Shown here one piece after another: positions 22,105-52,795 of a stretch of DNA of 64,000 nucleotides; the first letter of the stretch is position 1, and every line of letters starts with the position of its first letter. Below the pieces are notes generated by a model. That model ran no database searches, had not been told where the DNA came from, and saw only the letters and a program-made list of their open reading frames with translations. The position numbers and the translations under genes were made by a program. Source of the stretch: an uncultured Paracoccaceae bacterium (GTDB lineage: Bacteria > Pseudomonadota > Alphaproteobacteria > Rhodobacterales > Rhodobacteraceae); contig CAJWHE010000002.1 of assembly GCA_913041145.1 (NCBI GenBank), positions 1 to 64,000 of the forward strand, written 5' to 3'.

Positions 22105-23301
22105 TTAAAAAGTTTTAAAGTTTCCCTCTAAAACTGATGCCGAAGTAAACATAGGGGAATGACTAAATTCAGATTTTGTTATTTCAAAGTTCGGAAACCG
22201 TGAACACATAAATGAAATTACTTCTTCAATTTCTATTGTTACAGCAAAACGGCCAATACATGAAAAAATACCTCCTCCAAAATTCAAGTGTGTCGGTTTA
22301 TCTGGACGATTTATATCAAACTTTTCAGGTTCTGGAAAATAATTAGGATTCCAATGAGCAGCACCAATATTTGGAAATACTGCTTCACCCTTAGGTATCA
22401 AGTACCCGTCTAAATTCACATTTTCTAGTGTTTCTCTAGAGGTAGAAAGGGAGCGCGGATGATACCTCATGACTTCACGTAGAGCTTGTGGAATTAAAGA
22501 ACTATCCTGGCCTAATTTTTTCCAAATATTTGGTCTAGACGATAATTCAATTATAGCTATTGCTATCTGATGAGAAGAGTTGTCTGTGTTAGCCTCTGCG
22601 AGCTTAACAACCCAATTTCGTAATTCAGAAGGAGTAAGGTAACCTTCATCTGTTGCTTTAATTAGGTCTGATAATAGATCGTCACCCAAATTCTTACGTG
22701 AATACTCTATTCTTTTATCAACATAATCTAATAGTGCCTCAAACCCTGCAGATACTGCTTGCGCTGTTGCCGGGTCTCTCGTGTGCACTTGTTGAACGAT
22801 ATGAGAGGTTCGAGATACAAACTCTGCATCTTCTTGGGGGGCATTTAACCAATAACAGTAAACTTTTGACGGTATTTGATCACATAAATACTTTATAAGA
22901 TTAACGTTCTCGTTTTTTGGGATATCATTAAACGTATTTTTTACTACATTTTTTATATCTATCCTAAACCTTTCAGACCCACTTGGCCCCATTAATTGAG
23001 TTAATGGAATTCGTAACCGCCTTCTAGTTTCTCCTCGATCATGAAAAGAAATAGATTTTTCCTTATAACTTAATGCGGGACCCTCAGGCATACCAAGAAC
23101 CTTCATTAACTTTGGGTGACCAGTTCCAAATCTTCGGTCTAGGATTGTTTCTCGACAAAGATCATAATCGAGTATTTCAATTCCTCTTTTACTACGTCCT
23201 AGCTTAAAATTTTGTGCATAAGAAGCTAAGGTTTTCAATGGATGTGAAAGGTATTCAGAAGATTGAAAATCAATTTCAGGTAATTCTAAGATTGTTTTCA
23301 T
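22105..23301 (-). CDS. Cytochrome P450
   Basis: A 398-residue soluble bacterial P450. The heme-thiolate motif FGGGIFSCIG has Cys348; the ExxR pair is Glu276 and Arg279 in LREVMRYHP; PERF-like residues follow in PEKFDINRP. The I-helix reads ANTDNS (237-242) where most P450s have AGxDTT, so the usual glycine and the oxygen-activating threonine are both asparagine, while the acidic residue (Asp240) is kept. CYP176A1 (P450cin) is a known case with Asn for this Thr. No dedicated P450 ferredoxin or reductase is adjacent; the Rieske ferredoxin at 25.6 kb is an atypical partner. Transcribed divergently from the AraC-type regulator. Confidence 0.93.
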   Translation of the reverse strand: MKTILELPEIDFQSSEYLSHPLKTLASYAQNFKLGRSKRGIEILDYDLCRETILDRRFGTGHPKLMKVLGMPEGPALSYKEKSISFHDRGETRRRLRIPLTQLMGPSGSERFRIDIKNVVKNTFNDIPKNENVNLIKYLCDQIPSKVYCYWLNAPQEDAEFVSRTSHIVQQVHTRDPATAQAVSAGFEALLDYVDKRIEYSRKNLGDDLLSDLIKATDEGYLTPSELRNWVVKLAEANTDNSSHQIAIAIIELSSRPNIWKKLGQDSSLIPQALREVMRYHPRSLSTSRETLENVNLDGYLIPKGEAVFPNIGAAHWNPNYFPEPEKFDINRPDKPTHLNFGGGIFSCIGRFAVTIEIEEVISFMCSRFPNFEITKSEFSHSPMFTSASVLEGNFKTF

Positions 23302-23544: not shown

Positions 23545-24507
23545 ATGGAGAAAAAAATAAAGATAGTATTAGTACCAGGTTTCTCACACCTTTCATTAGG
23601 TGCGATTTTAGAACCACTAAAAACATTAAGTAGGTTATTCTCCGAAATATGTTTAGAAATAGAAGTAGTCAGTATTTCAGATAGGTCTGTTGAGTCCTCA
23701 TCAGGAATTTCCGTTAACTCCCAAATACTACTAGACGAATGCCTAACTTCTCTAAGTAGTAAGAATCGAACTAATGCATTATTTCTTTGCTGTGGGTTAC
23801 GTATGCCATATAAGTTACAGGCTGATCTAAAAAAATTACTACGAACCTGCAGTAGATTTAACGTTCCTATATTCGGTGTAGGTTGCGCAGGATGGAAAAT
23901 GGCCGATGCTGGGATACTGGAAAACGGATTAGCAACTGTCCATTGGTCTACACTTGCAGCCTTTTCTGAAAGAAACCAGCATGTAAAAACAGTAGATGCA
24001 CTATATGTAGAGACAGAACGCTTTACCACTAGCCCTGGTGAAGCCGCAACACTAGATATGGTTATCGAATTTATAAAAAAAGAATTTTCGCCAGAATATG
24101 CTAATCTTGTATGCGATCACCTGATGATTTCCTACACAAGAAGCGGTGATCTTGAGCAACCAAAAAGCAATGCTCAAAGGTTAAGAGATGTACCCTTTAC
24201 TCTTCAAAAGGCTATATCTCTAATGAAAAACAATATTGAAACTCCATTAACAATAAAAGAGGTTTCAAAGTTAGCTTATTTATCATTACGACAGTTAGAG
24301 CGTTTATTTTCTAAACACCTCAAGTTGTCTCCTAAGAAATACTACTTAAAAATCAGACTACTTCACGGCCGCCAGCTAATAGAGCAAACCTCCATGTCTA
24401 TACTAGACATATCCATCACTAGTGGTTTTTCTACCCGAAGAGCGTTTTCAAAATCCTATCTTAAGGAGTATGGTTTCTTACCATCCCATACAAGAAGAGC
24501 ACCCTAA
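23545..24507 (+). CDS. GlxA-type transcriptional regulator (DJ-1/PfpI domain plus AraC HTH)
   Basis: A 320-residue regulator. Residues 1 to about 190 form a DJ-1/PfpI-like sensor with the nucleophile-elbow segment GVGCAGWKMADAGIL (Cys114) and ATVHW; residues about 215-320 form an AraC double helix-turn-helix with LTIKEVSKLAYLSLRQLERL and the second helix around MSILDISITSGFSTRRAFSKSY. This subfamily includes GbdR, SouR and CdhR, which respond to glycine betaine/dimethylglycine, sarcosine and carnitine. It is divergent from the P450-GST pair and heads the desaturase-ferredoxin genes, so it probably controls one or both. The ligand is unknown. Confidence 0.9.
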   Translation: MEKKIKIVLVPGFSHLSLGAILEPLKTLSRLFSEICLEIEVVSISDRSVESSSGISVNSQILLDECLTSLSSKNRTNALFLCCGLRMPYKLQADLKKLLRTCSRFNVPIFGVGCAGWKMADAGILENGLATVHWSTLAAFSERNQHVKTVDALYVETERFTTSPGEAATLDMVIEFIKKEFSPEYANLVCDHLMISYTRSGDLEQPKSNAQRLRDVPFTLQKAISLMKNNIETPLTIKEVSKLAYLSLRQLERLFSKHLKLSPKKYYLKIRLLHGRQLIEQTSMSILDISITSGFSTRRAFSKSYLKEYGFLPSHTRRAP

Positions 24508-24592: not shown

Positions 24593-25558
24593 ATGGCCTA
24601 TGAAGTAAAAACACCTATAACCCAAGCAATGAAAGAAGGCGTAATAACTCGTAAAGAGTTAAAAGAGCTTATGAAAAGGTCTGATAAACCTGCTTTTATA
24701 CGATTATTTATTTGGATAACCTTACTTTCCTTAACGAGTTATTTAATATTTCTTTCTTACGAAACTTGGTATGTTTTGCCAGCAATGTTTATACACGGCA
24801 TCGTTTTAGTTCATCATTTTTCACTCCAACACGAGTGTTGCCATTACACTGCTTTTAAAACAAGGAAACTAAATGATATATTTGGGCACATCTGTGGCTT
24901 TTCAATTATATTACCAAATCAGCACTTTCGTTATGAACACTGTGATCATCACACATACACCCAGCTAAAAGGCCAAGATCCAGAACTAATAGAACTCCCA
25001 ATTTCAGTATATAAATACCTTTGGTATATTTCATCAATACCTTACTGGAAAAACAAATTTTCAGAAATTTTTCGACATGTGTTCGGTCAGATCAGTGAAG
25101 AAGAGAAACATTTTATACCCAAGCAGGAGTATCTAACTGTTTTTAGAGAAGCTCGAATAATGGTCACTATTTATTCAATAATTTTGATTGGATGCATATT
25201 AACTAATAACTGGACACCTTTTTGGTACTGGTTGCTACCTTTGTTTATGGGTGAACCTGTTATGCGAGCAATCCGTTTAACCGAGCATGTAGGGCGGCCT
25301 AACACTGATGATCTAAAGGAAAATACGCGAAGTAGCCTTATTTCTTTTCCTATGAGGTTTCTTTCCTGGAATATGAACTTTCATGCTGAACACCACTATG
25401 CGTCGTCGATACCCTTTCATGCACTTCCAAAACTACACAAGAAGTTAAAAGGATTTGTGTATATAGAAAAGCGTGGTTACCTTGGCGCCCATATTGACAT
25501 TATATCTCAGTTAATTGGTCGTAAGCCTCGTAGTGATGTGGAAGTAACGAAAAGTTGA
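24593..25558 (+). CDS. Fatty-acid-desaturase-like membrane di-iron oxygenase
   Basis: A 321-residue integral membrane protein with the three histidine boxes of the FA_desaturase superfamily: HECCH at 80-84, EHCDHH at 115-120 and HAEHH at 264-268, plus an extra conserved EHVGR near 231. Hydrophobic segments lie near residues 37-75, 97-107 and 188-220. The superfamily includes acyl desaturases, alkane and carotenoid hydroxylases and other C-H oxygenases needing electrons from a ferredoxin. The next gene encodes a Rieske ferredoxin whose TTG start overlaps this stop codon, strongly suggesting it is the electron donor. Lipid desaturation is not certain; hydroxylation of a small molecule is equally possible. 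Confidence 0.85.
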   Translation: MAYEVKTPITQAMKEGVITRKELKELMKRSDKPAFIRLFIWITLLSLTSYLIFLSYETWYVLPAMFIHGIVLVHHFSLQHECCHYTAFKTRKLNDIFGHICGFSIILPNQHFRYEHCDHHTYTQLKGQDPELIELPISVYKYLWYISSIPYWKNKFSEIFRHVFGQISEEEKHFIPKQEYLTVFREARIMVTIYSIILIGCILTNNWTPFWYWLLPLFMGEPVMRAIRLTEHVGRPNTDDLKENTRSSLISFPMRFLSWNMNFHAEHHYASSIPFHALPKLHKKLKGFVYIEKRGYLGAHIDIISQLIGRKPRSDVEVTKS

Positions 25559-25875
25559 CTCAAAAAACTAAATCTTGGAAAAACTTAATCAATGTAAGTG
25601 ACCTAGAGGTGGGTGATGTTACTCCAGTAACTTTTGGTACTAGGGAGATCGCTGTATTTGATGCAGAGGACGGTATTTTTGTTAGCCTTTCTAGATGCAC
25701 CCATGGAGCGGCAAATTTATGTGACGGATATTTTGATGGAACATATATAGAATGCCCTTTGCACCAGGGTTTGTTCGATGTCAGAACGGGTGAAGCAAAA
25801 GCTGCACCCGCTCGCGTTCCCTTAAGAATGATAAATTGCAGGGTTATAGAGAAGGTTGTTCAGATTTATATTTGA
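25555..25875 (+). CDS. Rieske-type [2Fe-2S] ferredoxin
   Basis: A 106-residue protein with Rieske cluster ligands Cys48 and His50 (RCTHG) and Cys67 and His70 (CPLHQG), the spacing of soluble ferredoxin components of multicomponent oxygenases. It starts with TTG at 25555, overlapping the desaturase TGA (TTGA), so translation is coupled. Its 3' end overlaps the convergent MATE gene by 10 bases. It could donate electrons to the desaturase-like protein, to the Rieske oxygenase at 27.3-28.3 kb, or to both. No ferredoxin reductase is encoded in this window. Confidence 0.9.
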   Translation: MTQKTKSWKNLINVSDLEVGDVTPVTFGTREIAVFDAEDGIFVSLSRCTHGAANLCDGYFDGTYIECPLHQGLFDVRTGEAKAAPARVPLRMINCRVIEKVVQIYI

Positions 25876-27245
25876 CTCTTCTGCCAGAGTCCGCCGATTT
25901 CTTTATTAGCAACTTTATAAGTAATAAATATTGAAAGCACCCATCCAAAAAAAACACTCACCCCAGCTCCAACCCAAACTCCCCATACATCACACCCTAA
26001 AACACCTATAAATATCCATATAAAAAAGGCAGTTAGTAACCCTTGCCTAAAAAGGCCAATCCAAAAAATGCTAGCAGGTCGTTTAACTCCTTGCAAAAAA
26101 GAATTAACAGAAAAAAGTATTGCATATAGTGGCAAAATTAATCCATCAATTCTAAGATAACTAACTCCAACACTTATAACCTCCGAGCTAGACGTAAAAA
26201 CTTTTAATACACTAGCACTAAAAATCCAAATAATTGGATAAACTATTATCATCATTACAAATCCAGCTGAGCAACAGTAAAAAAGAGATAGCCTAACACG
26301 TTGGAAATTCTTTGCCCCATAATTTTGCGCAACAATCGGAAGAAGTGCCTGGGTCATTCCCAAAATAGGTAATAGTAAAAGCTGCTCTATTCTTAAGCCT
26401 ATATTATACCCGGCTAAAGCGTGTGGTCCAAACCCCTTCAACGCAAACTGAACGACGAGACTACCTATTATCACCATTTGAAACGACATACACCCAGGGA
26501 TCATCTGTTTAATAATTTCATAGTAACCTTGGAAATTTTTTAAAGACACTTTCGAAATTAAGTGTAATCCGAGAGCTGAGCATTTCACTTGTATAAGTAA
26601 AAAAACCATCACCAAATTTTGGCAAATAACGACCGACAAAGAAATTCCGTCAAAACCAATTCCTAACCATAAATTAGGTACTCCAAAAATTAGAATTGGT
26701 GTAATAATGATAATTAAGAAAAAAGCTCCTACTAATGCACGTTGCATGGATACACTGTCACCCTGGGCCTGTAATGCACCATTGCAAGTATAAGAAATTA
26801 AAAATGCTGGTAACGCACTTAGCAGTATCAAAAAATACCGAACACTATATTCTCGATATGGCCCTGCCTCTGACACTAAATTTATTACTAATGGTCCACA
26901 TACAACACCAAACACTATCAAGATGATCGAAATAAAAATGGTTAAAATTATTCCCCTAGTAATTAGTACCTTTGCTTCATTAATTTTTCTTTCACCTAGA
27001 AAATTTCCGACCAAACCTGCCATAGCAGCGTTTAATCCAAAACCGAAAGCAATTAGGAAAAAATATACTAAGTGGCCGATCCCAATTCCAGCTTGCGCAC
27101 TTGTTGATAGCTTACCAGCAAAGTATATTCCTACCATATTATATAATGTATAAAAGACCATGCCTATTGCCATAGGCATTGCAAGTCTGTAAAAATGATT
27201 TGGAATTGAACCTACGGTTAAATCAGAATTAACTTTCTCAAGCAT
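25866..27245 (-). CDS. MATE-family efflux transporter
   Basis: A 459-residue protein with 12 predicted membrane segments in two homologous halves, matching the MATE (NorM/DinF) family; LAMPMAIGMVFYTLYNMV opens the first half and an equivalent segment with GCMSFQMVIIGSLVVQ opens the second. These antiporters expel cationic drugs or metabolites using Na+ or H+. It starts 8 bases after the Rieske oxygenase stop on the same strand, so it is probably the last gene of the ABC-oxygenase operon. An exporter beside an importer and oxygenase suggests disposal of a product or toxic intermediate. Confidence 0.9.
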   Translation of the reverse strand: MLEKVNSDLTVGSIPNHFYRLAMPMAIGMVFYTLYNMVGIYFAGKLSTSAQAGIGIGHLVYFFLIAFGFGLNAAMAGLVGNFLGERKINEAKVLITRGIILTIFISIILIVFGVVCGPLVINLVSEAGPYREYSVRYFLILLSALPAFLISYTCNGALQAQGDSVSMQRALVGAFFLIIIITPILIFGVPNLWLGIGFDGISLSVVICQNLVMVFLLIQVKCSALGLHLISKVSLKNFQGYYEIIKQMIPGCMSFQMVIIGSLVVQFALKGFGPHALAGYNIGLRIEQLLLLPILGMTQALLPIVAQNYGAKNFQRVRLSLFYCCSAGFVMMIIVYPIIWIFSASVLKVFTSSSEVISVGVSYLRIDGLILPLYAILFSVNSFLQGVKRPASIFWIGLFRQGLLTAFFIWIFIGVLGCDVWGVWVGAGVSVFFGWVLSIFITYKVANKEIGGLWQKSQI

Positions 27246-27253
27246 GTTTTTGA

Positions 27254-28285
27254 TTATTTATTATTTTGATTTTCCTCATCAATCAGTCGCTTAAGCATCA
27301 ATCTAAATTGCTTTGCTCCAGCATCTAAACCAAGATCAATATTAGGTGTCTTTTTGTCTTTCATACCCGAGTGAACATGCTCTAATATACTTCTATCTTC
27401 TTCAAAAGCCATCCTAGCACCTGCATTCATTTTGTCAGAAATAACCTTATCTTCTGGATCAGTATTTCTGTGTTGAAACCAAAAATATCGAGTATTATCT
27501 TCATCGATTGGTGTCATAAAATTATAAGATATATTAATGTAAGTTAAATCAGTTATTGGTTTTTTATTTCCGCCAGTTCCAGCTGGCGTATATATTGACT
27601 TATTTAGTGCTATTGCTGGAACACACATCTCATAATGCTGCAAACGATCACTTTTTCCTGTAAACTTAACTAAACCAGCGTAATATGGTGAGGGCATATT
27701 CCCATTTATCCAACGAGACACAACAACACCTCTATCAGTCTTCTCAAGTTCAAGAGGTTCATCATCTGTACCTGCCCCTGCAAAAGAAGTTACATGAACC
27801 CACGCGACGTGGCTCGGATCAAGTAAATTATCACAAACCCACAAATAATTGCACTCTATATCTAAAACACCCCCATCTGTGTACCCCCACGAAGGGTCCT
27901 CGAAATTTTCAATTGGAAAAATTAAATCAGGATTTGCTAATTCTGGATCTCCCATCCATATCCATAGGAGCCGATAGCGATCTTGCACAGGGTAGGACTT
28001 AACTACTGCTCGTCTCGGAATTCGATCAGGTTGGGTAGGCGCAGACACACATTGCCCAAGGCAATTAAATGTTAATCCATGATAACCACAAATTACCTCA
28101 TCGCCCTCTAGTTTTCCTTCTGAAAGCGGCAACTTTCTGTGTGGACAAGAATTTTCTAATGCTACAGGCACACCATCATTTCGACGATAAATAACGATCT
28201 CTTCTTCCAAAAATCTTTCTGCAATCAGTGTGCGGCCGTAATCTTTACTCCAACCAGCTACATACCAACAATTTTTTAAATACAT
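27254..28285 (-). CDS. Rieske non-heme iron oxygenase, vanillate-O-demethylase (VanA)-like
   Basis: A 343-residue alpha subunit. The N-terminal Rieske cluster uses Cys47, His49 (CPHR) and Cys66, His69 (CGYHG). The mononuclear iron site is the DNLLDPSHVAWVH segment, giving bridging Asp152/Asp156 and ligands His159 and His164. Length and layout match VanA-type demethylases, a group acting on O-methyl and N-methyl substrates and on ring carbons. It needs a reductase or ferredoxin partner; the nearest is the small Rieske ferredoxin on the opposite strand. Placement 32 bases after an ABC permease and 8 bases before the MATE gene implies that the imported compound is its substrate. Confidence 0.88.
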   Translation of the reverse strand: MYLKNCWYVAGWSKDYGRTLIAERFLEEEIVIYRRNDGVPVALENSCPHRKLPLSEGKLEGDEVICGYHGLTFNCLGQCVSAPTQPDRIPRRAVVKSYPVQDRYRLLWIWMGDPELANPDLIFPIENFEDPSWGYTDGGVLDIECNYLWVCDNLLDPSHVAWVHVTSFAGAGTDDEPLELEKTDRGVVVSRWINGNMPSPYYAGLVKFTGKSDRLQHYEMCVPAIALNKSIYTPAGTGGNKKPITDLTYINISYNFMTPIDEDNTRYFWFQHRNTDPEDKVISDKMNAGARMAFEEDRSILEHVHSGMKDKKTPNIDLGLDAGAKQFRLMLKRLIDEENQNNK

Positions 28286-28317
28286 TTTACAACCTCAATA
28301 TTTTTTTAAATCTATAA

Positions 28318-29205
28318 CTATTTACTTCCCTCTAACTTAGTAAATAATAATGAAAGTCCAAAGCATATTACAAAATAAAATGCCGCTGTCGTTAACCAAG
28401 CTTCAAAAATCATATGTGTAGATGAAACCAGCTCAGCGGTCTTATACGTCAACTCCTGTACTGATATAAGGGATATTATTGAACTATCTTTTATCAAGGT
28501 AATAAACTGATTGGCCATTGGTGGCATAATTTTTTTCATTGCTTGCGGTAAAATAATATACCTCATCTCTTGAAAACTACTCATCCCAACAGATCTAGCA
28601 GCTTCTCCCTGACCTCGGTCTACAGATTGTATCCCTGCTCTAACAATTTCTCCAACAAAAGCACTCTCAAAAAGAGCTAAAACTATTACACCGGAAATTA
28701 ATGAAGGGAACCGGCGCATATCTCCACAAAAAAATTCCCATATTTGATTGTTTTCCATTTTGGCTATTTTATACGACCAACTCTCAATATTCATCGCTTG
28801 TATAATTTGCTCTGCCAAAAAAAAGTAAAAAATGAAAATAACGACTAATGGAGGGATATTTCGAAGAAACTCCAGGTAAGTCCTTGCTAACATCCTAATT
28901 ACAAGATTGCGGGAGCATCGTGCAATTCCCAAAACAACTCCAAGAATTAATGCTAAAATAGTAGCGTAAATGCTTACTCTCACTGTAATAATTAAGCCTT
29001 GAAGTAATAGATTCGCAAACCACTCCTGACGGCCATTATGATACTTAAAAATATAGTTTGGAATTTTTTCCCATCGCCAATGATAGTTTAAATTACCACT
29101 CATCTGTACAAATACGTAAGTAAAAAAAGCAATCACGCACCCCAAGATTAGAAAGTCTAACCAATGTAATTTTTTACGTATTTTTTGCACGTGGTTTCCA
29201 GTCAT
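28318..29205 (-). CDS. Polar amino-acid ABC transporter permease
   Basis: A 295-residue inner-membrane permease of the HEQRo/PAAT family with five or six predicted helices. The ABC-interacting EAA loop is present as GEAARSVGMSSFQEMRYIILPQA, and the family start motif is GLIITVRVSIYATILALILG. It is the second permease of an importer whose ATPase, other permease and binding protein lie upstream. A terminator-like hairpin sits immediately before its ATG at 29205 and may lower its expression relative to the binding protein. Confidence 0.92.
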   Translation of the reverse strand: MTGNHVQKIRKKLHWLDFLILGCVIAFFTYVFVQMSGNLNYHWRWEKIPNYIFKYHNGRQEWFANLLLQGLIITVRVSIYATILALILGVVLGIARCSRNLVIRMLARTYLEFLRNIPPLVVIFIFYFFLAEQIIQAMNIESWSYKIAKMENNQIWEFFCGDMRRFPSLISGVIVLALFESAFVGEIVRAGIQSVDRGQGEAARSVGMSSFQEMRYIILPQAMKKIMPPMANQFITLIKDSSIISLISVQELTYKTAELVSSTHMIFEAWLTTAAFYFVICFGLSLLFTKLEGSK

Positions 29206-29233
29206 AAAAATAGAGGGCTAAAACAGCCCCCTA
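29206..29233 (-). terminator. Terminator-like hairpin between binding-protein and permease genes
   Basis: On the minus strand TAGGGGGCT (29233-29225), loop GTTTT, then AGCCCTCTA (29219-29211) form a 9-bp stem with one G-U pair, followed by five Us (29210-29206) that run into the permease ATG at 29205. It is well placed as a partial terminator or mRNA-stabilising 3' end for the binding-protein message. Confidence 0.7.
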
Positions 29234-29254
29234 TCATTTCCTAGTTAGGCTCTA

Positions 29255-30085
29255 CTATTCAACTTGATCGTGCCAAGCGTCACCTCTGAACCAGTAATCA
29301 TGAGTGTTTTTCAACCAACCAGTATGATTATGTCTTCTGATCCAACTATTAAAATAAGCTAACGCGTCTGGATCTGATTTTCTCATAGCAAAACCTTCTC
29401 CACCAGCATCGAATGCTATGTTGAATGGAACATTTAAAGTTTCAGGATTACGACGAGCATCTTGGGATGGCCCAGGCTCTGTAGCCATAGTTGCATGAGC
29501 ATTACCATTTAATACTTCTTGAGTTGAAGCACCATCTTCATCAAACATCAATAATTTCGCTTTTGGAAATTTGTTTTGAATAAATACACATGGGGTAGCA
29601 CCACGTCGACATGAAAAAGTAATATCTTCACTGTTATAATCTTCTAAAGCCATTCCTTTTGTCATTGCTGTATTAGCTAAGATTGTTAAGCCCGAAAATG
29701 CATATGGTTCTGAAAAGTTAACTGTCAAGTTTCGTGAAGGTGTAACTGTCATCCCACTTATGATAACATCGAACTTACCAGCAACTAAAGCTGGAATGAT
29801 ACCCGCCCATTTTGTTGGAATAAATTCTACTTCCACTCCCATATCAGCAGCTAACTTTTTACCTACATCAGGCTCGAAACCAACTAAATCACCATCTTTA
29901 TTTCTCATTGACCAAGGTACAAAGAGGTCCAATCCGATTTTGATTACGCCACGTTTTTTTATAGTCTCGATTACGCTTTCAGCTCCAAGCGATTGTGCTG
30001 TTCCTGCAAAGGTTGCGTGAGAAAAGCTTATACTAGCTAAAGCGGCACTTAAAACCACCCCCAGTAAACGTCTTGTGATATTCAT
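29255..30085 (-). CDS. Amino-acid-type ABC transporter substrate-binding protein
   Basis: A 276-residue periplasmic binding protein, SBP family 3. A Sec signal peptide spans about residues 1-27 (ending HATFAG). Family signatures are GVIKIGLDLFVPWS near residue 50 and GFEPDVGKKLAADMGVEVEFIPTKWAGIIPAL near 70-100, the cluster common to glutamine/arginine-binding proteins. A pair of cysteines (SCRRGATPC) may form a disulfide. It lies between two permease genes, an arrangement seen in some amino-acid importers. A ligand cannot be read out; the neighbouring oxygenase suggests a modified amino acid or betaine. Confidence 0.92.
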   Translation of the reverse strand: MNITRRLLGVVLSAALASISFSHATFAGTAQSLGAESVIETIKKRGVIKIGLDLFVPWSMRNKDGDLVGFEPDVGKKLAADMGVEVEFIPTKWAGIIPALVAGKFDVIISGMTVTPSRNLTVNFSEPYAFSGLTILANTAMTKGMALEDYNSEDITFSCRRGATPCVFIQNKFPKAKLLMFDEDGASTQEVLNGNAHATMATEPGPSQDARRNPETLNVPFNIAFDAGGEGFAMRKSDPDALAYFNSWIRRHNHTGWLKNTHDYWFRGDAWHDQVE

Positions 30086-30136
30086 TTTGTACTTCCTTTC
30101 TGTTTAGTTTTGCTAGCAACCAGTTTTAATGGTCAC

Positions 30137-30979
30137 TCAGTTTGTAACGGTATATCGCCTTTCTACTTGCGACGCCCCGATCGATAGGATCATTATAACA
30201 ACCATATAAATAACTGCTATAGTGAACCAAATTTCAAAAGCCATATAGGTATCAGAAATAATATTTTGACCTAATGTAGTTAACTCTGCGACCGCAATAA
30301 CACTAACAATTGCTGAGCTTTTTACCATATGAACTACTTCACCTGTCATTGGTGGTAGCATAAAGCGAATAGATTGAGGTAATATAATATATCTGTACAT
30401 CTGTGCTTTACTCATACCAATTGATTTTGCTGCTTCCCATTGACCTTGGGCTACAGCATTTATCCCAGCCCTCAGGATTTCAGATATTAATGCTGAGTGA
30501 TAAACAGCTAGGCAGAGAATACTTGCGGTATAACGATCGTATTTAAAAACCGGTCCTAACACATAATAAAAAAGGTATACTAATACTAGTAATGGAATAT
30601 TTCGGACAAATTCTAAAAAACATATGGCAACTTTTGTTCCAATAACTAAACCAGATAATCTTAAAAGTGCAACTAACAAACCGAAAAGCATAGCAAGAAT
30701 AAGAGCTGAAAAAGATAACGTTATTGTAGTCCAAAGCCCAAACATCAGCTCTCCAAACTGAAAGCCATCATCTGTATAGCTATATATATATTTGGGAATT
30801 TGATACCATTGCCAGTTATACCCCATGGATTGGGCTCCTCTAAATGACGAATAAAGAATACTGGCAACAATTAAGAGATAAATAACAATAGAAACAGGCG
30901 TGGACGAAAAGAACCGGTTAATGGCTGGCGGTCGTCTTACGGGCAAACCTTTCATAGACATTGATCCACTGGCTTCCAT
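30137..30979 (-). CDS. Polar amino-acid ABC transporter permease
   Basis: About 280 residues from the ATG at 30979, 5 bases after the ATPase stop; an in-frame GTG 14 codons upstream would overlap the ATPase gene and is less likely. The protein has the PAAT permease motif LWTTITLSFSALILAML, the EAA loop GQWEAAKSIGMSKAQMYRYI and hydrophobic segments at both ends. Together with the second permease at 28.3-29.2 kb it should form the heterodimeric channel of this importer. Confidence 0.9.
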   Translation of the reverse strand: MEASGSMSMKGLPVRRPPAINRFFSSTPVSIVIYLLIVASILYSSFRGAQSMGYNWQWYQIPKYIYSYTDDGFQFGELMFGLWTTITLSFSALILAMLFGLLVALLRLSGLVIGTKVAICFLEFVRNIPLLVLVYLFYYVLGPVFKYDRYTASILCLAVYHSALISEILRAGINAVAQGQWEAAKSIGMSKAQMYRYIILPQSIRFMLPPMTGEVVHMVKSSAIVSVIAVAELTTLGQNIISDTYMAFEIWFTIAVIYMVVIMILSIGASQVERRYTVTN

Positions 30980-30984
30980 AACAA

Positions 30985-31731
30985 TCAGTGCTCCAGTATT
31001 TGTTCTAAAAATTCTCTGCACCGATCACTATCGGGATTAGAAAAAAACTTTTCAGGGGGTGCTACCTCTATTATTTTTCCTTCATCCATGAATACCATTG
31101 TATCTGCCACTTTTCTAGCAAAACCCATTTCATGCGTAACGCAGACCATGGTCATTCCTGTATCAGCTAACTCTACCATTACATCTAAAACTTCATTAAT
31201 CATTTCAGGGTCAAGTGCAGATGTTGGCTCATCAAATAATAAGATTTTGCTTTCCATACACAAAGATCGCGCAATGGCTACACGCTGTTGCTGTCCTCCG
31301 GATAACTCTGCTGGGTATTTCTCTGCCTGCTCCGGAATATGTACACGTTCAAGATATTTACGAGCCATTATTTCTGCTTCAGACTTCGGAATTTTTCGAA
31401 CTTTAATAGGACCGATTGTTAAATTTTCTAAAACAGTCAAATGTGGGAATAAATTAAATTGTTGGAAAACCATACCAATTTCCTGGCGAAGCCTAATTAT
31501 GTCTTTAGAGCCTTCAAAAACTTCAATGCCATCTACGGTTAACTTCCCTGCATTATGGTTTTCTAAACCATTTATACACCTTATTAATGTAGATTTCCCT
31601 GACCCAGAAGGCCCACAAATAACCATTCTCTCACCAGCGTTAACAGAAATAGTTATATCTTTTAACGCCTGGAAATTTCCATAAAACTTATCAACACTTT
31701 CAAACTTAATAATTGGAAGTGTATTTGACAT
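30985..31731 (-). CDS. Polar amino-acid ABC transporter ATP-binding protein (GlnQ-like)
   Basis: A 248-residue ABC ATPase with Walker A GPSGSGKS near residue 39, Q-loop FQQFNLFPHLTV, signature LSGGQQQR near 143, Walker B ILLFDEPTSALDPE and switch histidine in VCVTHEMGFA. All motifs are intact and the length is typical of GlnQ/HisP. It is the first gene of a probable operon continuing with permease, binding protein, second permease, Rieske oxygenase and MATE exporter. Confidence 0.95.
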   Translation of the reverse strand: MSNTLPIIKFESVDKFYGNFQALKDITISVNAGERMVICGPSGSGKSTLIRCINGLENHNAGKLTVDGIEVFEGSKDIIRLRQEIGMVFQQFNLFPHLTVLENLTIGPIKVRKIPKSEAEIMARKYLERVHIPEQAEKYPAELSGGQQQRVAIARSLCMESKILLFDEPTSALDPEMINEVLDVMVELADTGMTMVCVTHEMGFARKVADTMVFMDEGKIIEVAPPEKFFSNPDSDRCREFLEQILEH

Positions 31732-31900: not shown

Positions 31901-31934
31901 AAAAAAATTACCCCTAGCCATCAGCTAGGGGTAA
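31901..31934 (-). terminator. Rho-independent terminator of the TauD-like gene
   Basis: Reading leftward, TTACCCCTAGC (31934-31924), loop TGATG, then GCTAGGGGTAA (31918-31908) form a perfect 11-bp stem, followed by seven Us from the A-run at 31901-31907. It lies 30 bases after the TauD-like stop codon. Confidence 0.9.
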
Positions 31935-31963: not shown

Positions 31964-32842
31964 TCAGTTTGCTTGCATCGCTTTGTAGCGTTTTATTGAT
32001 ATGGGTTCTTCCCCTTCAATTGTCGCTCTTTGCATCACGCGGCGATGTTTGGCCACTTCTCCAAAGTAATCTGCGACTGCGTGATGTAAACAAACACGAT
32101 TATCCCAGAGTGCTAATGACCCTTTTTCCCACTCTAATCGACAACCTAAGTGAGCTTGAATAGAGTGCTCATAAAGGTAGGTTAATATAGGTGCACTCTC
32201 TTTATCTGTCATTCCTTTAATTCTCTTAGTGAAGGCAAGTGAACTGAATAGAGATTTTTTTCCAGTTACTGGATGTACGCGGACCATTGGGTGTACTGCG
32301 CCCATAGCACCCTTTTTTCCTAACTCTTCCATTGATTGATATTTATTACTGTATTTTTCTGGGTTACCGGATTCATTTTCTCCTTCAAGCCCATCTAAGA
32401 GGGCTTTCATACCTTCTGAAAGTGTTTCATAGGCAAGATACATATTTGTAAAAGCAGTATCTGCTCCATATGGTGGGCACTCTTTTGCATATAAAGTTGC
32501 TCCAAGCGGTGGTTTCTTCAAGAACATAAGATCAGAGTGGTAATAACCATCCCAACTATATGATTCTCCAGGTTCCCTAATAATCTTAAAGATTTCAGGA
32601 ATTTCTGGTATACCTTTCACATATGGGTGCGGGATAAGCTTACCAAACCTCTGAGTAAAATCAAATTGTTGTTGGTCTGTTAGGTCCTGACCTCTAAAGA
32701 TAAGTACTAAATAATTTGCCCACGCATCCTGAATTTCCATCCAAGTTTCTGAATCAATACTAGACGTAAGGTCAATATTAGTAATTTCTGCCCCCATCGC
32801 ACCAGAAATCGGTTTAACAGTAATTCTCTTGTAATTCGCCAT
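31964..32842 (-). CDS. TauD/TfdA-family Fe(II)/2-oxoglutarate dioxygenase
   Basis: A 292-residue dioxygenase with the iron triad His102-x-Asp104 (YYHSDL) and His253 (DNRVCLHHAVADY), and the 2-oxoglutarate-binding arginine in RRVMQRATI near residues 267-272, in close parallel to E. coli TauD. The family hydroxylates taurine, aryloxyacetates, gamma-butyrobetaine-like compounds and other small substrates. It has its own terminator and an upstream element (32903-32949) very similar to one before soxB, so it is probably induced together with sarcosine oxidase. An oxidative N-dealkylation or C-hydroxylation feeding sarcosine or glycine is a reasonable guess. Taurine is not supported by context. Confidence 0.9.
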   Translation of the reverse strand: MANYKRITVKPISGAMGAEITNIDLTSSIDSETWMEIQDAWANYLVLIFRGQDLTDQQQFDFTQRFGKLIPHPYVKGIPEIPEIFKIIREPGESYSWDGYYHSDLMFLKKPPLGATLYAKECPPYGADTAFTNMYLAYETLSEGMKALLDGLEGENESGNPEKYSNKYQSMEELGKKGAMGAVHPMVRVHPVTGKKSLFSSLAFTKRIKGMTDKESAPILTYLYEHSIQAHLGCRLEWEKGSLALWDNRVCLHHAVADYFGEVAKHRRVMQRATIEGEEPISIKRYKAMQAN

Positions 32843-33022: not shown

Positions 33023-33523
33023 TTAAAGCTTAATAGACTTATACAAATAATCTTCGACCATATCACTATAACTTTGATCAACACCAAACTCAAAACCATT
33101 TTCAATACGTTGAATTAATGCTTTTGTCCCAAAAACTTCACTAAAAGTTACTGAGTTCTCTCTAAATTTTTTTTCATAAAAATCTAATGGACTAGCTATT
33201 GCCATTATATCTTTCGCTCCAACCCCTGTCACCGAAAAAAACGTAAGCGTATCAGACACCAGTACAACACTTATATTCGAACGAGTTGCCCCTGACTTTA
33301 GCAAAGAGTTAAGCTCTTCTTCCTCTTCGATTGGACCCCGTAAAATCCAATTATCTTGACCAATATACATCAAAGTTTTACAACTTTTTGAAATGGATGT
33401 ATTCGCTTTCTCAGGTATCTTCTGAAAAAAGTGAGACAATAACTTTTTCACATCCGACAAATTTCCTTTGATGTCAAAAAGTGCTGATATTTTCTGTCTA
33501 TTTATTTTTACCTCGTAAACCAT
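33023..33523 (-). CDS. soxG: Sarcosine oxidase gamma subunit
   Basis: A 166-residue protein resembling the SoxG family, small and poorly conserved but recognisable from DNWILRGPIEEEEELNSLL and the DLSDSLTFFSVTG-like segment (SDTLTFFSVTG) leading to LDFYEKKF. SoxG has a GcvT-like fold and completes the heterotetramer. It starts 1 base after the soxA stop, so the two are translationally coupled, and it ends the soxBDAG operon. Low conservation is normal for this subunit. Confidence 0.85.
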   Translation of the reverse strand: MVYEVKINRQKISALFDIKGNLSDVKKLLSHFFQKIPEKANTSISKSCKTLMYIGQDNWILRGPIEEEEELNSLLKSGATRSNISVVLVSDTLTFFSVTGVGAKDIMAIASPLDFYEKKFRENSVTFSEVFGTKALIQRIENGFEFGVDQSYSDMVEDYLYKSIKL

Positions 33524-33524: not shown

Positions 33525-36464
33525 TTAAGACCTTAAAAGCTCCCCACTGGGGTCATGAAAAATTGGGGCGGTGATCTTAGCTTTTATCGCCCGTTCCTTC
33601 AATCGGATATACGCTGTTTCACCATGGCGTGAATGCCCATTTTCTAATAAAGCCAACCCAACCCACCGATTATTTAATACACTCCACACACATGCTGTAG
33701 TCAAACCCTCAGTAGCTCTCTTTTCTCCTTTAGGCGTTAATGGAGCTCCCTCAGGGATGGCGTCATTAGGATTTTCGGGTAATAGACCAACTAACTCACG
33801 CCTAGACTCCCCCAGACTACGCCTCAGCTCTACTGATCTCTTACCAATAAAATCTTTTTTCTTCTTTGACATTACCCAACCCATACCAAGATCAAATGCA
33901 TCGACGGTACCATCCACTTCATGTCCAAGTGATAAAAATCCTTTTTCTACTCGCAACACATGACTTGCTTCAGATCCAACTGGTAGAATATTAAATTCTA
34001 TTCCAGCATCTAAGACGCTGTTCCAAAGTTTGAGTAAGTCTCGGGTTGCAACGTTGATTTCAAATGAAAGTTCACCCGTAAAACTAACTCTAATAATTCG
34101 TGCTGCAATGCCACCAACCGTTCCCTCTCGAAAGGACATAAATGGAAATGATTCCTTAGAGATATCTATATTTGTACCTAATTTCTCTAAAACTTTTCTA
34201 GCATTTGGGCCACAAATAGTTGCATTGCTCCACTGACTTGTAATCCCCGTAATTTTTACATCCCAATTAGGTTGATCAAACTTTAATACTTTTTTCATAT
34301 GCTGATTTACTGCATCGGAGTGCCCTGATGAAGTAGAAAGCAACCATCGGTCCTCACTTAACCGAAATACCACACCATCATCAAATATTAGACCGTCATC
34401 GGTCAACATAAACCCATAACGTCCATTACCTGGTTTAAGGGAAGACATTACATTAGTATATATAAGGTCCAAAAACTGGCTCACATCCTTTCCCTGGAGT
34501 TCGAATTTTCCTAATGGAGAGCCATCATAAACACCAACTGATGTTCTTACAGCTAAGCACTCTCGATTTACAGCATCCTGGAAGCCTTCATCCATCATAG
34601 GAAAATAACCAGGCCTTCTCCACCTTGCACCGGCCTCGTACATAAATGCACCCTTATCTAAGTTCCATTTTGTAATTGGTGTGTGCCTGTAGGGTAGGAC
34701 TACTGAACCTTCTCGAAGCCCACCTATTGAGCCAAAAGAAACTGGGCTGAACGGTGATCTAAATGTAGTTGTTCCAACTTCTTCTAAATTAAGTCCCTGA
34801 CTTAAAGCAATTTTTCCTATAATATTTATATTTCCAGTTTTTCCTTGATCTATCCCCATTCCACCTGTGGTATAACGCTTAACATGTTCTACGTTGGAGT
34901 AACCTTCAAGAATAGCGAGATCGACATCATCGGAAGTAACATCGTTTTGAATATCTAAAAAAGACTTTCCAAATTTTTTAGATGCCTCAACTTGCCATAG
35001 TGGTTCGATTGAATATTTTTCAAGTGTAGCGTTAGGAATTTCTGTATAACTTTCTTTCAAACCGATTTCTTTTAAGGCCTGCTTACCAACCTCTAAACCG
35101 CTAGACAAAGCTTCATCCAGGGTAAGTTTTCCTGAAGCAGCCCCAACACAAAAAGACTTTTGAATAGCTTTGTCTGGAACAAAAGTGGCAAGATTTAAAA
35201 CATATTTCAAACTCCCTCGAGATTGTGAATGTAAATGAACCGTAGGATTCCAACCCCCAGAATGACCAACAAGATCACAGGACATAGTTACTATTTTTTT
35301 TGTACTTATGGACATTATTTGAACAGACTTGACTCTTTTATACCCGTTTACTTTTGCAACTACACTGTCAGAAAAAACAGTGACATTAGGAACCTTCTTA
35401 GTTGCATATTCTGGAATATTTTTGCGAGAATCCACTACTGCAACTACGTGTCCACCAGCGTTCAAAATGTCTACCGCCACCGAATATGCACTGTCATTAT
35501 TAGTGAATAAAACAACTTTTTCTCCTGGCAAAACAGCATAGCGATTTATATAAGCCTGAATTGCTGATGCCATCATCACGCCAGGTCGATCATTATTAGG
35601 AAACACTAATGATCTTTCGATAGCACCTGTAGCTATTAAAACTTGATTAGCTCTAACTCTCCAGCTTCGTTCAATGATTGATACTTCTTTTGTAACTCGC
35701 TGATTAATGATAAGTAAATTATGCTCTCGATACGCCCAAACAGTGCTATTTTGTAACTGAGACACATTTTCCATACTACTTAATTCGGATACAACATCTT
35801 GCACCCAATCTAATCCAGTCTGCCCATTAATTTCTAAATTTTGATCTAGTAAACTACCACCAGGCTCATAATTTTGATCTGCAATAATTACTCTTGCTCC
35901 AGCCCGTCCTGCCACCAAAGCCGCCATCAAACCACTAGGACCAGCACCTACTATTAAAATATCTGCATGGGCATTCCGGGATTCAAAGTGACCTTTTTTT
36001 GGTGGCGCCACTGGCGCCCGAGCCAAACCAGCTGCCTTTCTTATAAAAGGCTCAAATAAATGCCAGGTTGGCCACTTAAATGTTTTATAGTAAAAACCTG
36101 CTGGTATAAAACGAGAAAAAACTTGAATTAATGCACCAAAATCAAATTCTGCCGAGGGCCAGCAATTCACAGATCTTGCCTTTAAACCCTCTTTAATAAT
36201 AACTGATGTTATCAAATTATTACCTGATTCATCATCACCTAAAAGTTCAACCAAAGAAGCGGGCTCCTCGATGCCAGATCCAACAATTCCTCTGGGACGA
36301 TGATATTTAAAACTTCTCGCAGTAACCATTACCCCATTAGCTAAAAGCGCTGATGCCAGTGTGTCTCCGTGAAAACCCTTGTATTTTTTCCCATTAAAAG
36401 AAAAACTTACTTCTTGTTCTCTATTAATCCTACCGCCAAACTTTAAACGTTTATTTTTGATCAT
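33525..36464 (-). CDS. soxA: Sarcosine oxidase alpha subunit
   Basis: About 979 residues from the ATG at 36464, which has GGAG 7 bases upstream and overlaps the end of soxD; an in-frame ATG 7 codons earlier lacks this. Domain order is as in known SoxA: an N-terminal ferredoxin-like segment with GFHGDTLASALLANGV, a Rossmann module (VGAGPSGLMAALVAGRAGARVI) near residue 170 that binds NAD in characterised enzymes, and a C-terminal GcvT/aminomethyltransferase domain from about residue 600 that binds tetrahydrofolate. The complex oxidises sarcosine to glycine and passes the methyl carbon to tetrahydrofolate as 5,10-methylene-THF with H2O2 release. Complete length. Confidence 0.96.
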   Translation of the reverse strand: MIKNKRLKFGGRINREQEVSFSFNGKKYKGFHGDTLASALLANGVMVTARSFKYHRPRGIVGSGIEEPASLVELLGDDESGNNLITSVIIKEGLKARSVNCWPSAEFDFGALIQVFSRFIPAGFYYKTFKWPTWHLFEPFIRKAAGLARAPVAPPKKGHFESRNAHADILIVGAGPSGLMAALVAGRAGARVIIADQNYEPGGSLLDQNLEINGQTGLDWVQDVVSELSSMENVSQLQNSTVWAYREHNLLIINQRVTKEVSIIERSWRVRANQVLIATGAIERSLVFPNNDRPGVMMASAIQAYINRYAVLPGEKVVLFTNNDSAYSVAVDILNAGGHVVAVVDSRKNIPEYATKKVPNVTVFSDSVVAKVNGYKRVKSVQIMSISTKKIVTMSCDLVGHSGGWNPTVHLHSQSRGSLKYVLNLATFVPDKAIQKSFCVGAASGKLTLDEALSSGLEVGKQALKEIGLKESYTEIPNATLEKYSIEPLWQVEASKKFGKSFLDIQNDVTSDDVDLAILEGYSNVEHVKRYTTGGMGIDQGKTGNINIIGKIALSQGLNLEEVGTTTFRSPFSPVSFGSIGGLREGSVVLPYRHTPITKWNLDKGAFMYEAGARWRRPGYFPMMDEGFQDAVNRECLAVRTSVGVYDGSPLGKFELQGKDVSQFLDLIYTNVMSSLKPGNGRYGFMLTDDGLIFDDGVVFRLSEDRWLLSTSSGHSDAVNQHMKKVLKFDQPNWDVKITGITSQWSNATICGPNARKVLEKLGTNIDISKESFPFMSFREGTVGGIAARIIRVSFTGELSFEINVATRDLLKLWNSVLDAGIEFNILPVGSEASHVLRVEKGFLSLGHEVDGTVDAFDLGMGWVMSKKKKDFIGKRSVELRRSLGESRRELVGLLPENPNDAIPEGAPLTPKGEKRATEGLTTACVWSVLNNRWVGLALLENGHSRHGETAYIRLKERAIKAKITAPIFHDPSGELLRS

Positions 36465-36708
36465 TAGGTTGCTCCACAATCTCATGCGTCATGGTATTAC
36501 GCCATATAGTAAACCATTCTCCACATCCTCTTGCATGAAACCATTTCTCTTCAACAGGGCCAATAGGGTTGGGGACCATTGTTAAATGATCCACCCATTC
36601 AGTATCTGTTACATCGCTAGGTTCCGGCCTATTGGATCCAACAGGGCCACCATAAACGAACTCTGTCTCGTTGCGTTCACCACAAAAAGGGCAATTAATT
36701 AATAACAT
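36451..36708 (-). CDS. soxD: Sarcosine oxidase delta subunit
   Basis: An 85-residue SoxD. The zinc ligands are visible as Cys6 and Cys9 (CPFCGERNE), His58 and Cys62 (FHARGCGEWF), and the R-N-T motif follows. SoxD is a small structural subunit binding zinc in the heterotetramer. It starts 13 bases after soxB and overlaps soxA by 14 bases, the standard tight packing. Confidence 0.95.
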   Translation of the reverse strand: MLLINCPFCGERNETEFVYGGPVGSNRPEPSDVTDTEWVDHLTMVPNPIGPVEEKWFHARGCGEWFTIWRNTMTHEIVEQPNDQK

Positions 36709-36721: not shown

Positions 36722-37972
36722 TCATCGAGCTGTCGTAGTCCCTGTTTCCATAATGTAGGCCAGATTCTTAAAACGTTTTACGCTGAAAGGTGCCATAAGG
36801 TTATGAGGTTCGTTTTTTGCAACATGATGTGCCATTGTTAAGCCTCCTGCAGGAATAGCTTTATATCCTCCCCACCAACCTGCTGTTACAAACAAACCTG
36901 CTATGTCTGTTTCATCCATAATCGGTGACGCATCTGGTGTAATATCTAAATGACCACCCCATTGCCTCAATAGCTTTAATTTCTTAAACGAAGGAAATAA
37001 CTCCAGCATTGCTCCAACCGTATCCTCAAAGACGTGCTGTTTTATATCTCTCCTAAAGCTTTGCCCTGAGTCTGGGCCTCCACCAATTACCAGCTCTCCT
37101 TTGTCCGACTGGCTAAAGTAAAAGCCCAAATCAGAGCAATTAACAATAACGTCTACTAAAGGCTTAACAGGCTCTGAAACAAAAGCTGTCAAATTCATTG
37201 TTCGTAAAGGTAGCCGTAACCCAACAGTTTCTGTAAGAGTAGTTGTATGGCCAGAAACAGCCACAACAACTTTCTTTGCCTTTACTATACCCTTTACTGT
37301 CTCAACTCCAGAAATCGTCCCATCCTGTCCTTTTATCAGTGACAGAACACCCGTTTGTTCATGCATTTCAACTCCCATAGAATCCGCCGCTCTGGCATAA
37401 CCCCAGGCAACTGCATCATGTCGATTTACTCCCGCATCAGTATGGACCATACCACCAATAATTGGTAATCGCGCATTTGACCCTCCGCCCGTTAATGGAG
37501 GAATTAGCTTTCGAACCTTCTCAGTTGTAATTTTCTCATATGTAGATCCGTAGATATCCATCGCCAACTGGCGTCGACGTAATTCTCTCATTTTTGGATA
37601 ATTAAGAACTACATCTATCATAGTTCGCTTAGAGTGCATCATATTAAAGTTTAAATCTTTTGTTAAACCTTCGTATAGCTCAACAGACTTTACATAAAAC
37701 GGTATAGATTGATCTCGAATATAATTGGAGCGTACCGTAACAGTGTTACGTGCTACATTTCCTCCACCAAGCCATCCTCGATCAAGAACAGCAACATTTG
37801 TAACTCCAAATTCTTTAGCTAAGTAATATGCTGTTGCTAAACCGTGTCCACCAGCCCCAATGATAATAACATCGTATTCATCTTTTAAAGTAGGGTTTCT
37901 CCAGGCCTTTTGCCACTTTGTATGACCTGACATTGCGTTTTTGGCCAAAGAAAAAATTGAGTACTTCTGCAT
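36722..37972 (-). CDS. soxB: Sarcosine oxidase beta subunit
   Basis: A 416-residue flavoprotein with the N-terminal FAD motif DVIIIGAGGHGLATAYYLA near residues 34-52 and the DAO-family C-terminal segment ITPDASPIMDE...GLFVTAGWWGGY. SoxB carries FAD and the covalently bound FMN of the heterotetramer and oxidises the N-methyl group of sarcosine. It is first in soxBDAG. The 47-bp element at 38067-38113 lies 95 bases upstream. Length is typical. Confidence 0.96.
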   Translation of the reverse strand: MQKYSIFSLAKNAMSGHTKWQKAWRNPTLKDEYDVIIIGAGGHGLATAYYLAKEFGVTNVAVLDRGWLGGGNVARNTVTVRSNYIRDQSIPFYVKSVELYEGLTKDLNFNMMHSKRTMIDVVLNYPKMRELRRRQLAMDIYGSTYEKITTEKVRKLIPPLTGGGSNARLPIIGGMVHTDAGVNRHDAVAWGYARAADSMGVEMHEQTGVLSLIKGQDGTISGVETVKGIVKAKKVVVAVSGHTTTLTETVGLRLPLRTMNLTAFVSEPVKPLVDVIVNCSDLGFYFSQSDKGELVIGGGPDSGQSFRRDIKQHVFEDTVGAMLELFPSFKKLKLLRQWGGHLDITPDASPIMDETDIAGLFVTAGWWGGYKAIPAGGLTMAHHVAKNEPHNLMAPFSVKRFKNLAYIMETGTTTAR

Positions 37973-52786: not shown

Positions 52787-52795
52787 AAAAGAAGG

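What the first reader, a model, noticed from the sequence alone, without database searches (positions are those of the whole stretch)
25555..31731. Importer-oxygenase-exporter operon facing a desaturase-ferredoxin pair
Amino-acid-type ABC genes, a VanA-like Rieske oxygenase and a MATE exporter are contiguous on one strand with small gaps (32 and 8 bases). A regulator-desaturase-Rieske ferredoxin unit converges on it, ends overlapping. The ferredoxin has no reductase here and could serve the desaturase, the Rieske oxygenase, or both. Together this looks like a pathway for one imported, probably methylated or cationic, compound with an exported product.
Basis: partly seen in the sequence, partly recalled or inferred. 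Interest (0 to 1): 0.6.

Follow-up and report, generated by a model that had tools for sequence, protein, structure and literature searches.

The report
Rieske demethylase module linked to histidine
A marine bacterium carries a conserved gene set that appears to import a methylated, histidine-like amino acid and strip off its methyl groups so that it can be burned through the ordinary histidine pathway; the substrate is still a guess from gene neighbours.

Summary
A six-gene minus-strand unit (amino-acid ABC importer, VanA-type Rieske oxygenase "ROX", MATE) meets a GbdR-like regulator / membrane desaturase / Rieske ferredoxin unit tail to tail. A terminator-like hairpin separates it from a TauD gene and a complete, divergent soxBDAG set. 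The nearest named relatives are Rhodobacteraceae MAGs.

Relatives change the reading. ROX, desaturase-ferredoxin, sox, importer and a NicX/M29-fold protein recur together in varied orders; 24 of 27 genomes with a close ROX have the desaturase, 6 of 368 others do. ROX also goes with histidine utilisation: two or more hut enzymes lie near it in 15 of 74 sampled stretches (0 of 40 random ones), and 54 of 68 ROX genomes have hutU against 147 of 327 others. More distant ROXs sit with a HisJ/HisQ-type importer, their own reductase, or a formaldehyde-disposal gene. The window's binding protein is closest to one solved with L-tryptophan.

Best explanation: ROX oxidatively demethylates an imported N-methylated, histidine-like amino acid that then enters hut; sox removes alpha-N-methyl groups. 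The ferredoxin belongs mainly to the desaturase. An exported product is unsupported. The substrate is inferred, not shown.

The parts
27254..28285 (-). ROX: VanA/DdmC-type Rieske monooxygenase, proposed N-demethylase; centre of the module
   Evidence: Pfam VanA_C 142.7 bits and Rieske 68.1; best solved relatives 7qwt and dicamba demethylase DdmC; ligands invariant in 158 rows
29255..30085 (-). substrate-binding protein (SBP_bac_3) of the importer
   Evidence: closest solved relative 9e2b, 48% identical, bound to L-tryptophan
28318..29205 (-). amino-acid-type ABC permease
   Evidence: ORF; homologues annotated 'amino acid ABC transporter permease' in Ruegeria conchae; recurs with ATPase and SBP
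30137..31021 (-). amino-acid-type ABC permease
   Evidence: ORF; as above
30985..31731 (-). ABC ATPase, first gene of the importer-ROX-MATE unit
   Evidence: ORF; recurs with the permeases and SBP
25866..27245 (-). MATE-family exporter, last gene of the unit
   Evidence: MatE 162 bits; near ROX in 24 of 80 and 9 of 74 stretches
24593..25558 (+). DES: membrane di-iron desaturase/hydroxylase, MocD-like
   Evidence: FA_desaturase 125 bits; in 24 of 27 genomes with a close ROX against 6 of 368 others
25555..25875 (+). FDX: Rieske-type [2Fe-2S] ferredoxin, partner of DES
   Evidence: Rieske 56.5 bits; 64 of 69 homologues lie within 120 bp of DES
23545..24507 (+). GbdR-like regulator (DJ-1/PfpI + AraC HTH)
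   Evidence: 188 bits, GbdR cut-off 480; kept at 50% or more identity near ROX in 6 of 80 and 3 of 74 stretches
31908..31934 (-). terminator-like hairpin (12 pairs, T7) upstream of the importer unit
   Evidence: first of 14 sites found (8.6 expected in shuffles); a consensus match only
31964..32842 (-). TauD-family Fe/2OG dioxygenase
   Evidence: kept at 50% or more near ROX in 7 of 80 and 5 of 74 stretches
33023..33523 (-). soxG-like subunit (by position and homology; no Pfam or NCBIfam hit)
   Evidence: the gene at this place in Ruegeria conchae is annotated sarcosine oxidase subunit gamma
33525..36485 (-). soxA, divergent
   Evidence: TIGR01372 1149 bits against cut-off 1164
36451..36708 (-). 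soxD
   Evidence: Pfam SoxD 99.7 bits; TIGR01374 92.7 bits against cut-off 116.5
36722..37972 (-). soxB, divergent paralogue
   Evidence: 503 bits against cut-off 529; two soxB over the cut-off elsewhere in the genome score 636 and 630
22105..23301 (-). cytochrome P450, conserved beside the module in part of the relatives
   Evidence: 49% or more identity near ROX in 13 of 80 and 8 of 74 stretches

Best explanation
The finding is the core of a conserved catabolic module for an N-methylated amino acid of the histidine type (candidates: pi- or tau-N-methylhistidine, free or from anserine-like dipeptides; hercynine; ovothiol-type compounds). Proposed steps: (1) the ABC importer, whose binding protein is related to an aromatic-amino-acid binder, brings it in [inferred]; (2) ROX hydroxylates an N-methyl carbon, which leaves as formaldehyde [inferred]; (3) the divergent SoxBDAG removes an alpha-N-methyl group onto tetrahydrofolate [inferred from family]; (4) DES with its ferredoxin, reduced by the unlinked Reductase_C-type reductase, carries out another oxygenation or demethylation, MocDE-like [inferred]; (5) histidine or a histidine-like product enters the complete hut operon encoded elsewhere in this genome [operon shown, flux inferred]. 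Shown: gene content, recurrence and co-occurrence. Not shown: any activity or substrate.
For: Two or more hut enzymes near ROX in 15 of 74 sampled stretches, 0 of 40 random stretches, and in 7 of 80 named loci. hutU is present in 54 of 68 ROX genomes against 147 of 327 others (Fisher p 2e-7, kinship not corrected). Hut linkage changes state at least 12 times on the ROX tree. hutU then ROX on one strand, about 20 bp between match edges in G082, G121, G354 (the last two nearly identical) and about 160 bp in G292. P. fragi plasmid: Lys/Arg/Orn-His-family SBP and HisQ permease over their cut-offs, AspA-like DUF2817 hydrolase, ROX, reductase; same set in P. bubulae. L. caerulea plasmid: hutF, GntR gene, ROX, reductase, and S-(hydroxymethyl)glutathione dehydrogenase over its cut-off; homologues of the last in 3 of 74 stretches (L163, L168 of one genome, L173). 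Window SBP 48% identical to an L-Trp-bound SBP. Own genome: hutCFIHGU. DES in 24 of 27 close-ROX genomes against 6 of 368, and 4 of those 6 carry a more distant ROX. Two or more sox subunits near ROX in 25 of 80 and 13 of 74 stretches, 1 of 40 random, in two parts of the ROX tree. The window soxB is a third, divergent copy.
Against: In the window's own genome hut is on another contig. 59 of 74 sampled stretches show fewer than two hut enzymes, and 14 of 68 ROX genomes, 6 of them with a close ROX, gave no hutU hit. The substrate cannot be read from the Rieske family alone. The linked oxygenases (DES, P450, TauD, PhyH) and the NicX-like fold have no clear place in a simple methylhistidine-to-histidine route. 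GbdR-like regulation and sox recall betaine pathways. The SBP families beside more distant ROXs differ from the window's (24-29% identity), so one substrate for all is not assured. Related sequences are not independent, so the p-values overstate.
Confidence: 0.5

Rival explanations
1. A betaine pathway like glycine betaine catabolism: a Rieske oxygenase takes the first methyl from a quaternary ammonium compound, SoxBDAG the last, under a GbdR-type activator.
For: GbdR is the best NCBIfam match of the regulator (188 bits); soxBDAG next door; purU beside sox and ROX in Paracoccus seriniphilus, though in none of the other loci tested; the P. fragi reductase matches GbcB second best (134.7 bits, cut-off 500). 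Parallel to gbcA/gbcB/soxBDAG/purU under GbdR in PMC12093977 (passages seen).
Against: ROX has a VanA_C domain and resembles DdmC; the regulator misses the GbdR cut-off and is kept at 50% identity in only 6 of 80 and 3 of 74 stretches; the SBP resembles an L-Trp binder; a hut link would not be expected.
Confidence: 0.15
2. Breakdown of another N-methylated heteroaromatic (for example a pyridinium betaine such as homarine): ROX and DES oxygenate the ring, the NicX-fold protein opens it, and the Sox-like complex oxidises an N-methyl amino acid product.
For: A conserved neighbour that the window lacks (60 of 80, 41 of 74 stretches, 0 of 40 random) has 2,5-dihydroxypyridine dioxygenase NicX as its closest solved fold, E 2e-14; creatininase-family, RidA and DoeB-like genes recur.
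Against: The next fold matches are M29 aminopeptidases, and a peptidase role would suit a methylhistidine dipeptide; ROX without that gene stands at the end of hut operons (L155, L156, L162, L177).
Confidence: 0.15
3. The ferredoxin is the electron donor of ROX as well as of DES, so the convergent pair is one electron-transfer unit.
For: The 80 close loci show no VanB-like reductase of 40% or more identity; FDX lies within 200 bp of ROX in 17 of 69 cases.
Against: FDX tracks DES (64 of 69 adjacent). None of 13 stretches around DES-FDX copies away from ROX holds a ROX (L181-L193), although in L191 one lies 14 kb off and some contigs are short. The stretch of close ROX L128 holds neither. Several distant ROXs have a VanB-like reductase.
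Confidence: 0.35
4. Chance neighbours: unrelated metabolic genes that happen to meet.
For: The exact window order occurs only in a few close relatives.
Against: Recurrence in many orders and co-occurrence across genomes.
Confidence: 0.04

Closest known systems
Glycine betaine catabolism gbcA-gbcB / dgcAB / soxBDAG / purU under GbdR (passages of PMC12093977)
   Same: Rieske oxygenase with a GbcB-like reductase in distant members, soxBDAG, purU in one relative, GbdR-like regulator in the window
   Different: VanA_C-type oxygenase, amino-acid ABC importer, hut linkage, desaturase-ferredoxin pair; dgcAB was not sought
Vanillate/dicamba-type demethylases (VanAB, DdmC)
   Same: ROX belongs to this Rieske monooxygenase group by domain and by closest solved sequences
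   Different: no VanB-like reductase near the 80 close loci; neighbours point to an amino acid
MocD-MocE-MocF (rhizopine catabolism; R. etli p42e annotated example)
   Same: desaturase followed by a Rieske ferredoxin
   Different: 35% identity, no MocF-like neighbour, ferredoxin below the MocE cut-off (62 against 136 bits); the demethylating role of MocDEF is recalled, not read
Histidine utilisation (hut) pathway
   Same: joined or close to ROX in many genomes
   Different: no Rieske oxygenase is part of the pathway as I recall it

Membership tests
VanA/DdmC-type Rieske monooxygenase | Rieske domain plus VanA_C domain over cut-off | tested here: met
   68.1 and 142.7 bits over cut-offs 20.3 and 23.5
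VanA/DdmC-type Rieske monooxygenase | 2Fe-2S ligands CxH..CxxH and Fe ligands D..H....H..D (motif recalled) | tested here: met
   present in the window, invariant in 158 of 158 rows
VanAB two-component demethylase | adjacent FNR/2Fe-2S reductase | tested here: not met
   none in the window nor in 80 close loci at 40% identity; present beside several distant relatives
MocDEF | ferredoxin over MocE cut-off (TIGR02377) | tested here: not met
   62.2 against 136.15 bits
MocDEF | adjacent MocF-like reductase | tested here: not met
   the only Reductase_C hit of the genome is on contig C8
Heterotetrameric sarcosine oxidase SoxBDAG | all four subunit genes together | tested here: met
   soxG by position and homology only
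Heterotetrameric sarcosine oxidase SoxBDAG | subunits over NCBIfam cut-offs | tested here: not met
   soxB 503/529, soxA 1149/1164, soxD 93/117
GbdR | NCBIfam equivalog cut-off | tested here: not met
   188 against 480 bits
N-methylhistidine demethylase (proposed) | activity on N-methylated histidine | not testable with these tools
   no assay; inference from neighbours

The most novel reading that the evidence does not exclude
An undescribed pathway, spread over Rhodobacteraceae and present on plasmids of Pseudomonas, Paraburkholderia, Shinella and others, in which a Rieske oxygenase family is dedicated to N-demethylating methylated histidines and hands the product to hut; in the window's clade three different demethylation systems (Rieske, membrane di-iron with Rieske ferredoxin, Sox) act in series on a multiply methylated histidine such as hercynine or an ovothiol.
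Probability: 0.35. Interest if true: 0.75.

Novelty: new variant of a known kind. Interest (0 to 1): 0.55.

Why it matters
Methylated histidines (anserine, methylhistidine, ergothioneine, hercynine, ovothiols) are, as I recall, common in meat, seafood, algae and fungi, yet searches listed no paper on how bacteria demethylate them for the hut pathway. If right, a widespread 'aromatic ring-hydroxylating dioxygenase' annotation would gain a concrete substrate class and a simple growth test.

Tried and rejected
Homarine and betaine readings were pursued first. Paper searches (listings only) showed no matching operon; the library holds no preprints, so a preprint on a homarine operon that I recall could not be compared, and homarine stays as a rival. 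Searches on ovothiol and hercynine and on methylhistidine, Rieske and hut listed no paper on this pathway, judged by titles and abstract starts. One search (PDB code 9E2B) found no paper; (rhizopine moc genes) was not read further. Viral contigs gave no match to the six ROX peptide patterns. The NicX-fold family has no Pfam, NCBIfam or PDB sequence match; only the fold search placed it. A first impression that G356 keeps the ferredoxin without the desaturase was dropped: only half the ferredoxin aligns there. G366 has DES without ROX on an 8.7 kb contig that ends beside MATE, so ROX may be missed; it was left among the 6 of 368. The SBP model is mediocre (pLDDT 78); the 9e2b match rests on sequence as well. 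The outgroup of the ROX tree did not fall on one side and has very long branches, so only inner clades are used. Counts in L021-L100 and L107-L180 overlap in genomes and are given apart where possible.
Full report
What is there. The window lies in a 2.42 Mb, 118-contig assembly whose nearest named relatives are Rhodobacteraceae MAGs (the closest, NAT686, has a 97%-identical ROX). The minus strand reads ATPase, permease, SBP, permease, ROX, MATE (31731 to 25866) with gaps of 32 and 8 bases around ROX. The plus strand reads GbdR-like regulator, desaturase, Rieske ferredoxin, with a 10-base tail overlap with MATE. A 12-pair hairpin with a T7 tail lies just upstream of the importer unit, after TauD and a full soxB-D-A-G set. 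So importer, ROX and MATE are probably one transcript of their own; this is inference.

Enzyme identities. ROX is a VanA_C Rieske oxygenase, best matched in the PDB by 7qwt and DdmC, with all metal ligands kept in 158 rows. DES is a membrane di-iron enzyme with nine core histidines kept in 67 rows. The pair DES-FDX resembles MocD-MocE: in R. etli p42e a 35%-identical desaturase is followed by an annotated MocE ferredoxin and an FAD-dependent oxidoreductase. The window soxB is one of three strong soxB matches in the genome and the only one of them below the family cut-off, which suggests a different N-methyl substrate.

Recurrence in 80 named loci (the best 80 of 402 relatives). Near ROX, by the identity thresholds: NicX-fold gene 60, DES 50, FDX 50, SBP of the window's type 43, CMD/peroxidase-like 41, sox (two or more subunits) 25, MATE 24, PhyH 19, P450 13, TauD 7, creatininase family 7, GbdR (50% or more) 6. 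Gene order varies widely: a permease stands less than 200 bp before ROX in 5 of 80. These loci were picked by similarity to ROX and some stretches are short, so the counts are lower bounds and not a random sample.

Recurrence in a family-wide sample. Of 395 family genomes, 68 carry ROX at E below 1e-100, in three identity bands: A 66-100% (27 genomes with the own one), B 54-59%, C 50-54%. I fetched 74 stretches that cover 75 of the 76 ROX places (the 76th is the window; L165 is only a flank). Two or more hut enzymes stand within the stretch in 15 of 74; a hutC-like gene alone in 4 more. Forty random 20-kb stretches from contigs of the same genomes gave 0 (Fisher p 0.001). The NicX-fold gene was in 41 of 74 against 0 of 40, sox in 13 of 74 against 1 of 40. 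On the tree, bands A and B are supported clades (SH-aLRT only), and hut linkage changes state at least 12 times. In the six genomes whose ROX and listed hutU share a contig over 3 Mb, the distances are about 20 bp, 8 kb, 9 kb, and three of more than 500 kb (the list of hutU places was cut off, so adjacency elsewhere was read from the fetched stretches).

Co-occurrence with hut. hutU (E below 1e-100) is in 201 of 395 genomes: 54 of 68 ROX genomes, 21 of 27 in band A, against 147 of 327 without ROX (Fisher p 2e-7, kinship not corrected). So 14 ROX genomes, 6 of them in band A (G086, G193, G229, G327, G357, G409), gave no hutU hit.

Co-occurrence of the desaturase. DES (E below 1e-80) is in 30 of 395 genomes: 24 of 27 band-A genomes and 6 of 368 others (Fisher p 1e-29, kinship not corrected); 4 of these 6 carry a band-B ROX, and two, G216 and G366, gave no ROX. 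The three band-A genomes without it are G104 (contig ends at FDX), G356 and G327. In G017, G292, G311, G390 and G393 the two genes lie at least 19 kb apart by the contig lengths printed, so the tie is not mere adjacency. Around such detached DES-FDX pairs the same companions reappear in several stretches: sox, importer, XRE, NicX-fold, and in L191 hut genes too.

The ferredoxin question. 64 of 69 FDX copies in L021-L180 lie within 120 bp of DES, 2 at contig edges, 3 with DES further off (the two locus sets overlap, separately 48 of 51 and 15 of 17). FDX is therefore the partner of DES first. Several band-C ROXs have their own FNR/2Fe-2S reductase directly behind (L104, L105, L166, L171, L203-L207), the ORFs 2 bp apart in L166. 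In the sample that reductase was seen beside ROX in L166 and L171 only, so for most ROXs the donor is unknown. Whether band-A ROX borrows FDX remains open. The own genome offers one Reductase_C-type reductase.

Pointers to the substrate. (a) The hut link as above; the own genome has a hutCFIHGU set on contig C45. (b) Pseudomonas plasmid L105 carries an SBP of the Lys/Arg/Orn-His family and a HisQ permease, both over a cut-off, an aspartoacylase-like DUF2817 hydrolase, ROX and a reductase; L206 shows the same order and annotation. The L105 host is recorded from meat. (c) L205 has hutF, a GntR gene beside it, ROX, reductase, a HisC-like aminotransferase and S-(hydroxymethyl)glutathione dehydrogenase; homologues of that dehydrogenase lie in L163 and L168 (one genome) and L173. 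Formaldehyde disposal fits oxidative demethylation. (d) The window SBP is 48% identical to an SBP solved with L-tryptophan. (e) Against: the NicX-like fold fits ring cleavage as well as peptide hydrolysis; SBPs beside other ROXs are only 24-29% identical to the window's; several plasmid ROX-reductase pairs have no histidine-related neighbour within the stretch seen (Thalassospira L203, Paraburkholderia L207); and several oxygenases have no assigned step.

Literature. Ten searches were made; I saw listings, and passages of one paper (PMC12093977). None listed a paper whose title or abstract start names a Rieske enzyme for methylated histidine. The library lacks most subscription journals and all preprints, so absence is weak evidence.

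Verdict. The single-pathway idea is supported by co-occurrence, the exported-product idea is not, and the likely substrate class moves to methylated histidine-like amino acids at about even odds.

Noticed in passing
L194 (own genome C45) 1058-8479 and 15008-15808: The genome's hut operon is preceded by a PotD-type ABC importer and an M24 (creatinase/ectoine-hydrolase-like) protein, named by eye, with a PhyH-like protein behind it; possibly a second route for a histidine derivative.
   Followed up: no
L086 11147-14362 (-): A 1071-aa protein next to ROX carries DmmA-like, 4Fe-4S and 2Fe-2S domains, perhaps a fused electron donor for ROX in that lineage.
   Followed up: partly
window 48917-54647: A gamma-glutamyltransferase beside an ORF 25% identical to the dipeptide-type SBP near the L. 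caerulea ROX, followed by two ORFs of permease size.
   Followed up: no
L103 87-4909: In Leisingera the ROX/hut region adjoins an aldehyde dehydrogenase, LLM flavin monooxygenase, flavin reductase and alpha/beta hydrolase set that recalls heterocycle ring-opening pathways (the likeness is recalled).
   Followed up: no
L206: The Pseudomonas bubulae plasmid that carries the ROX set is named p_intI1_positive in its record and typed mobilizable; an integron is implied by the name only and was not looked for.
   Followed up: no
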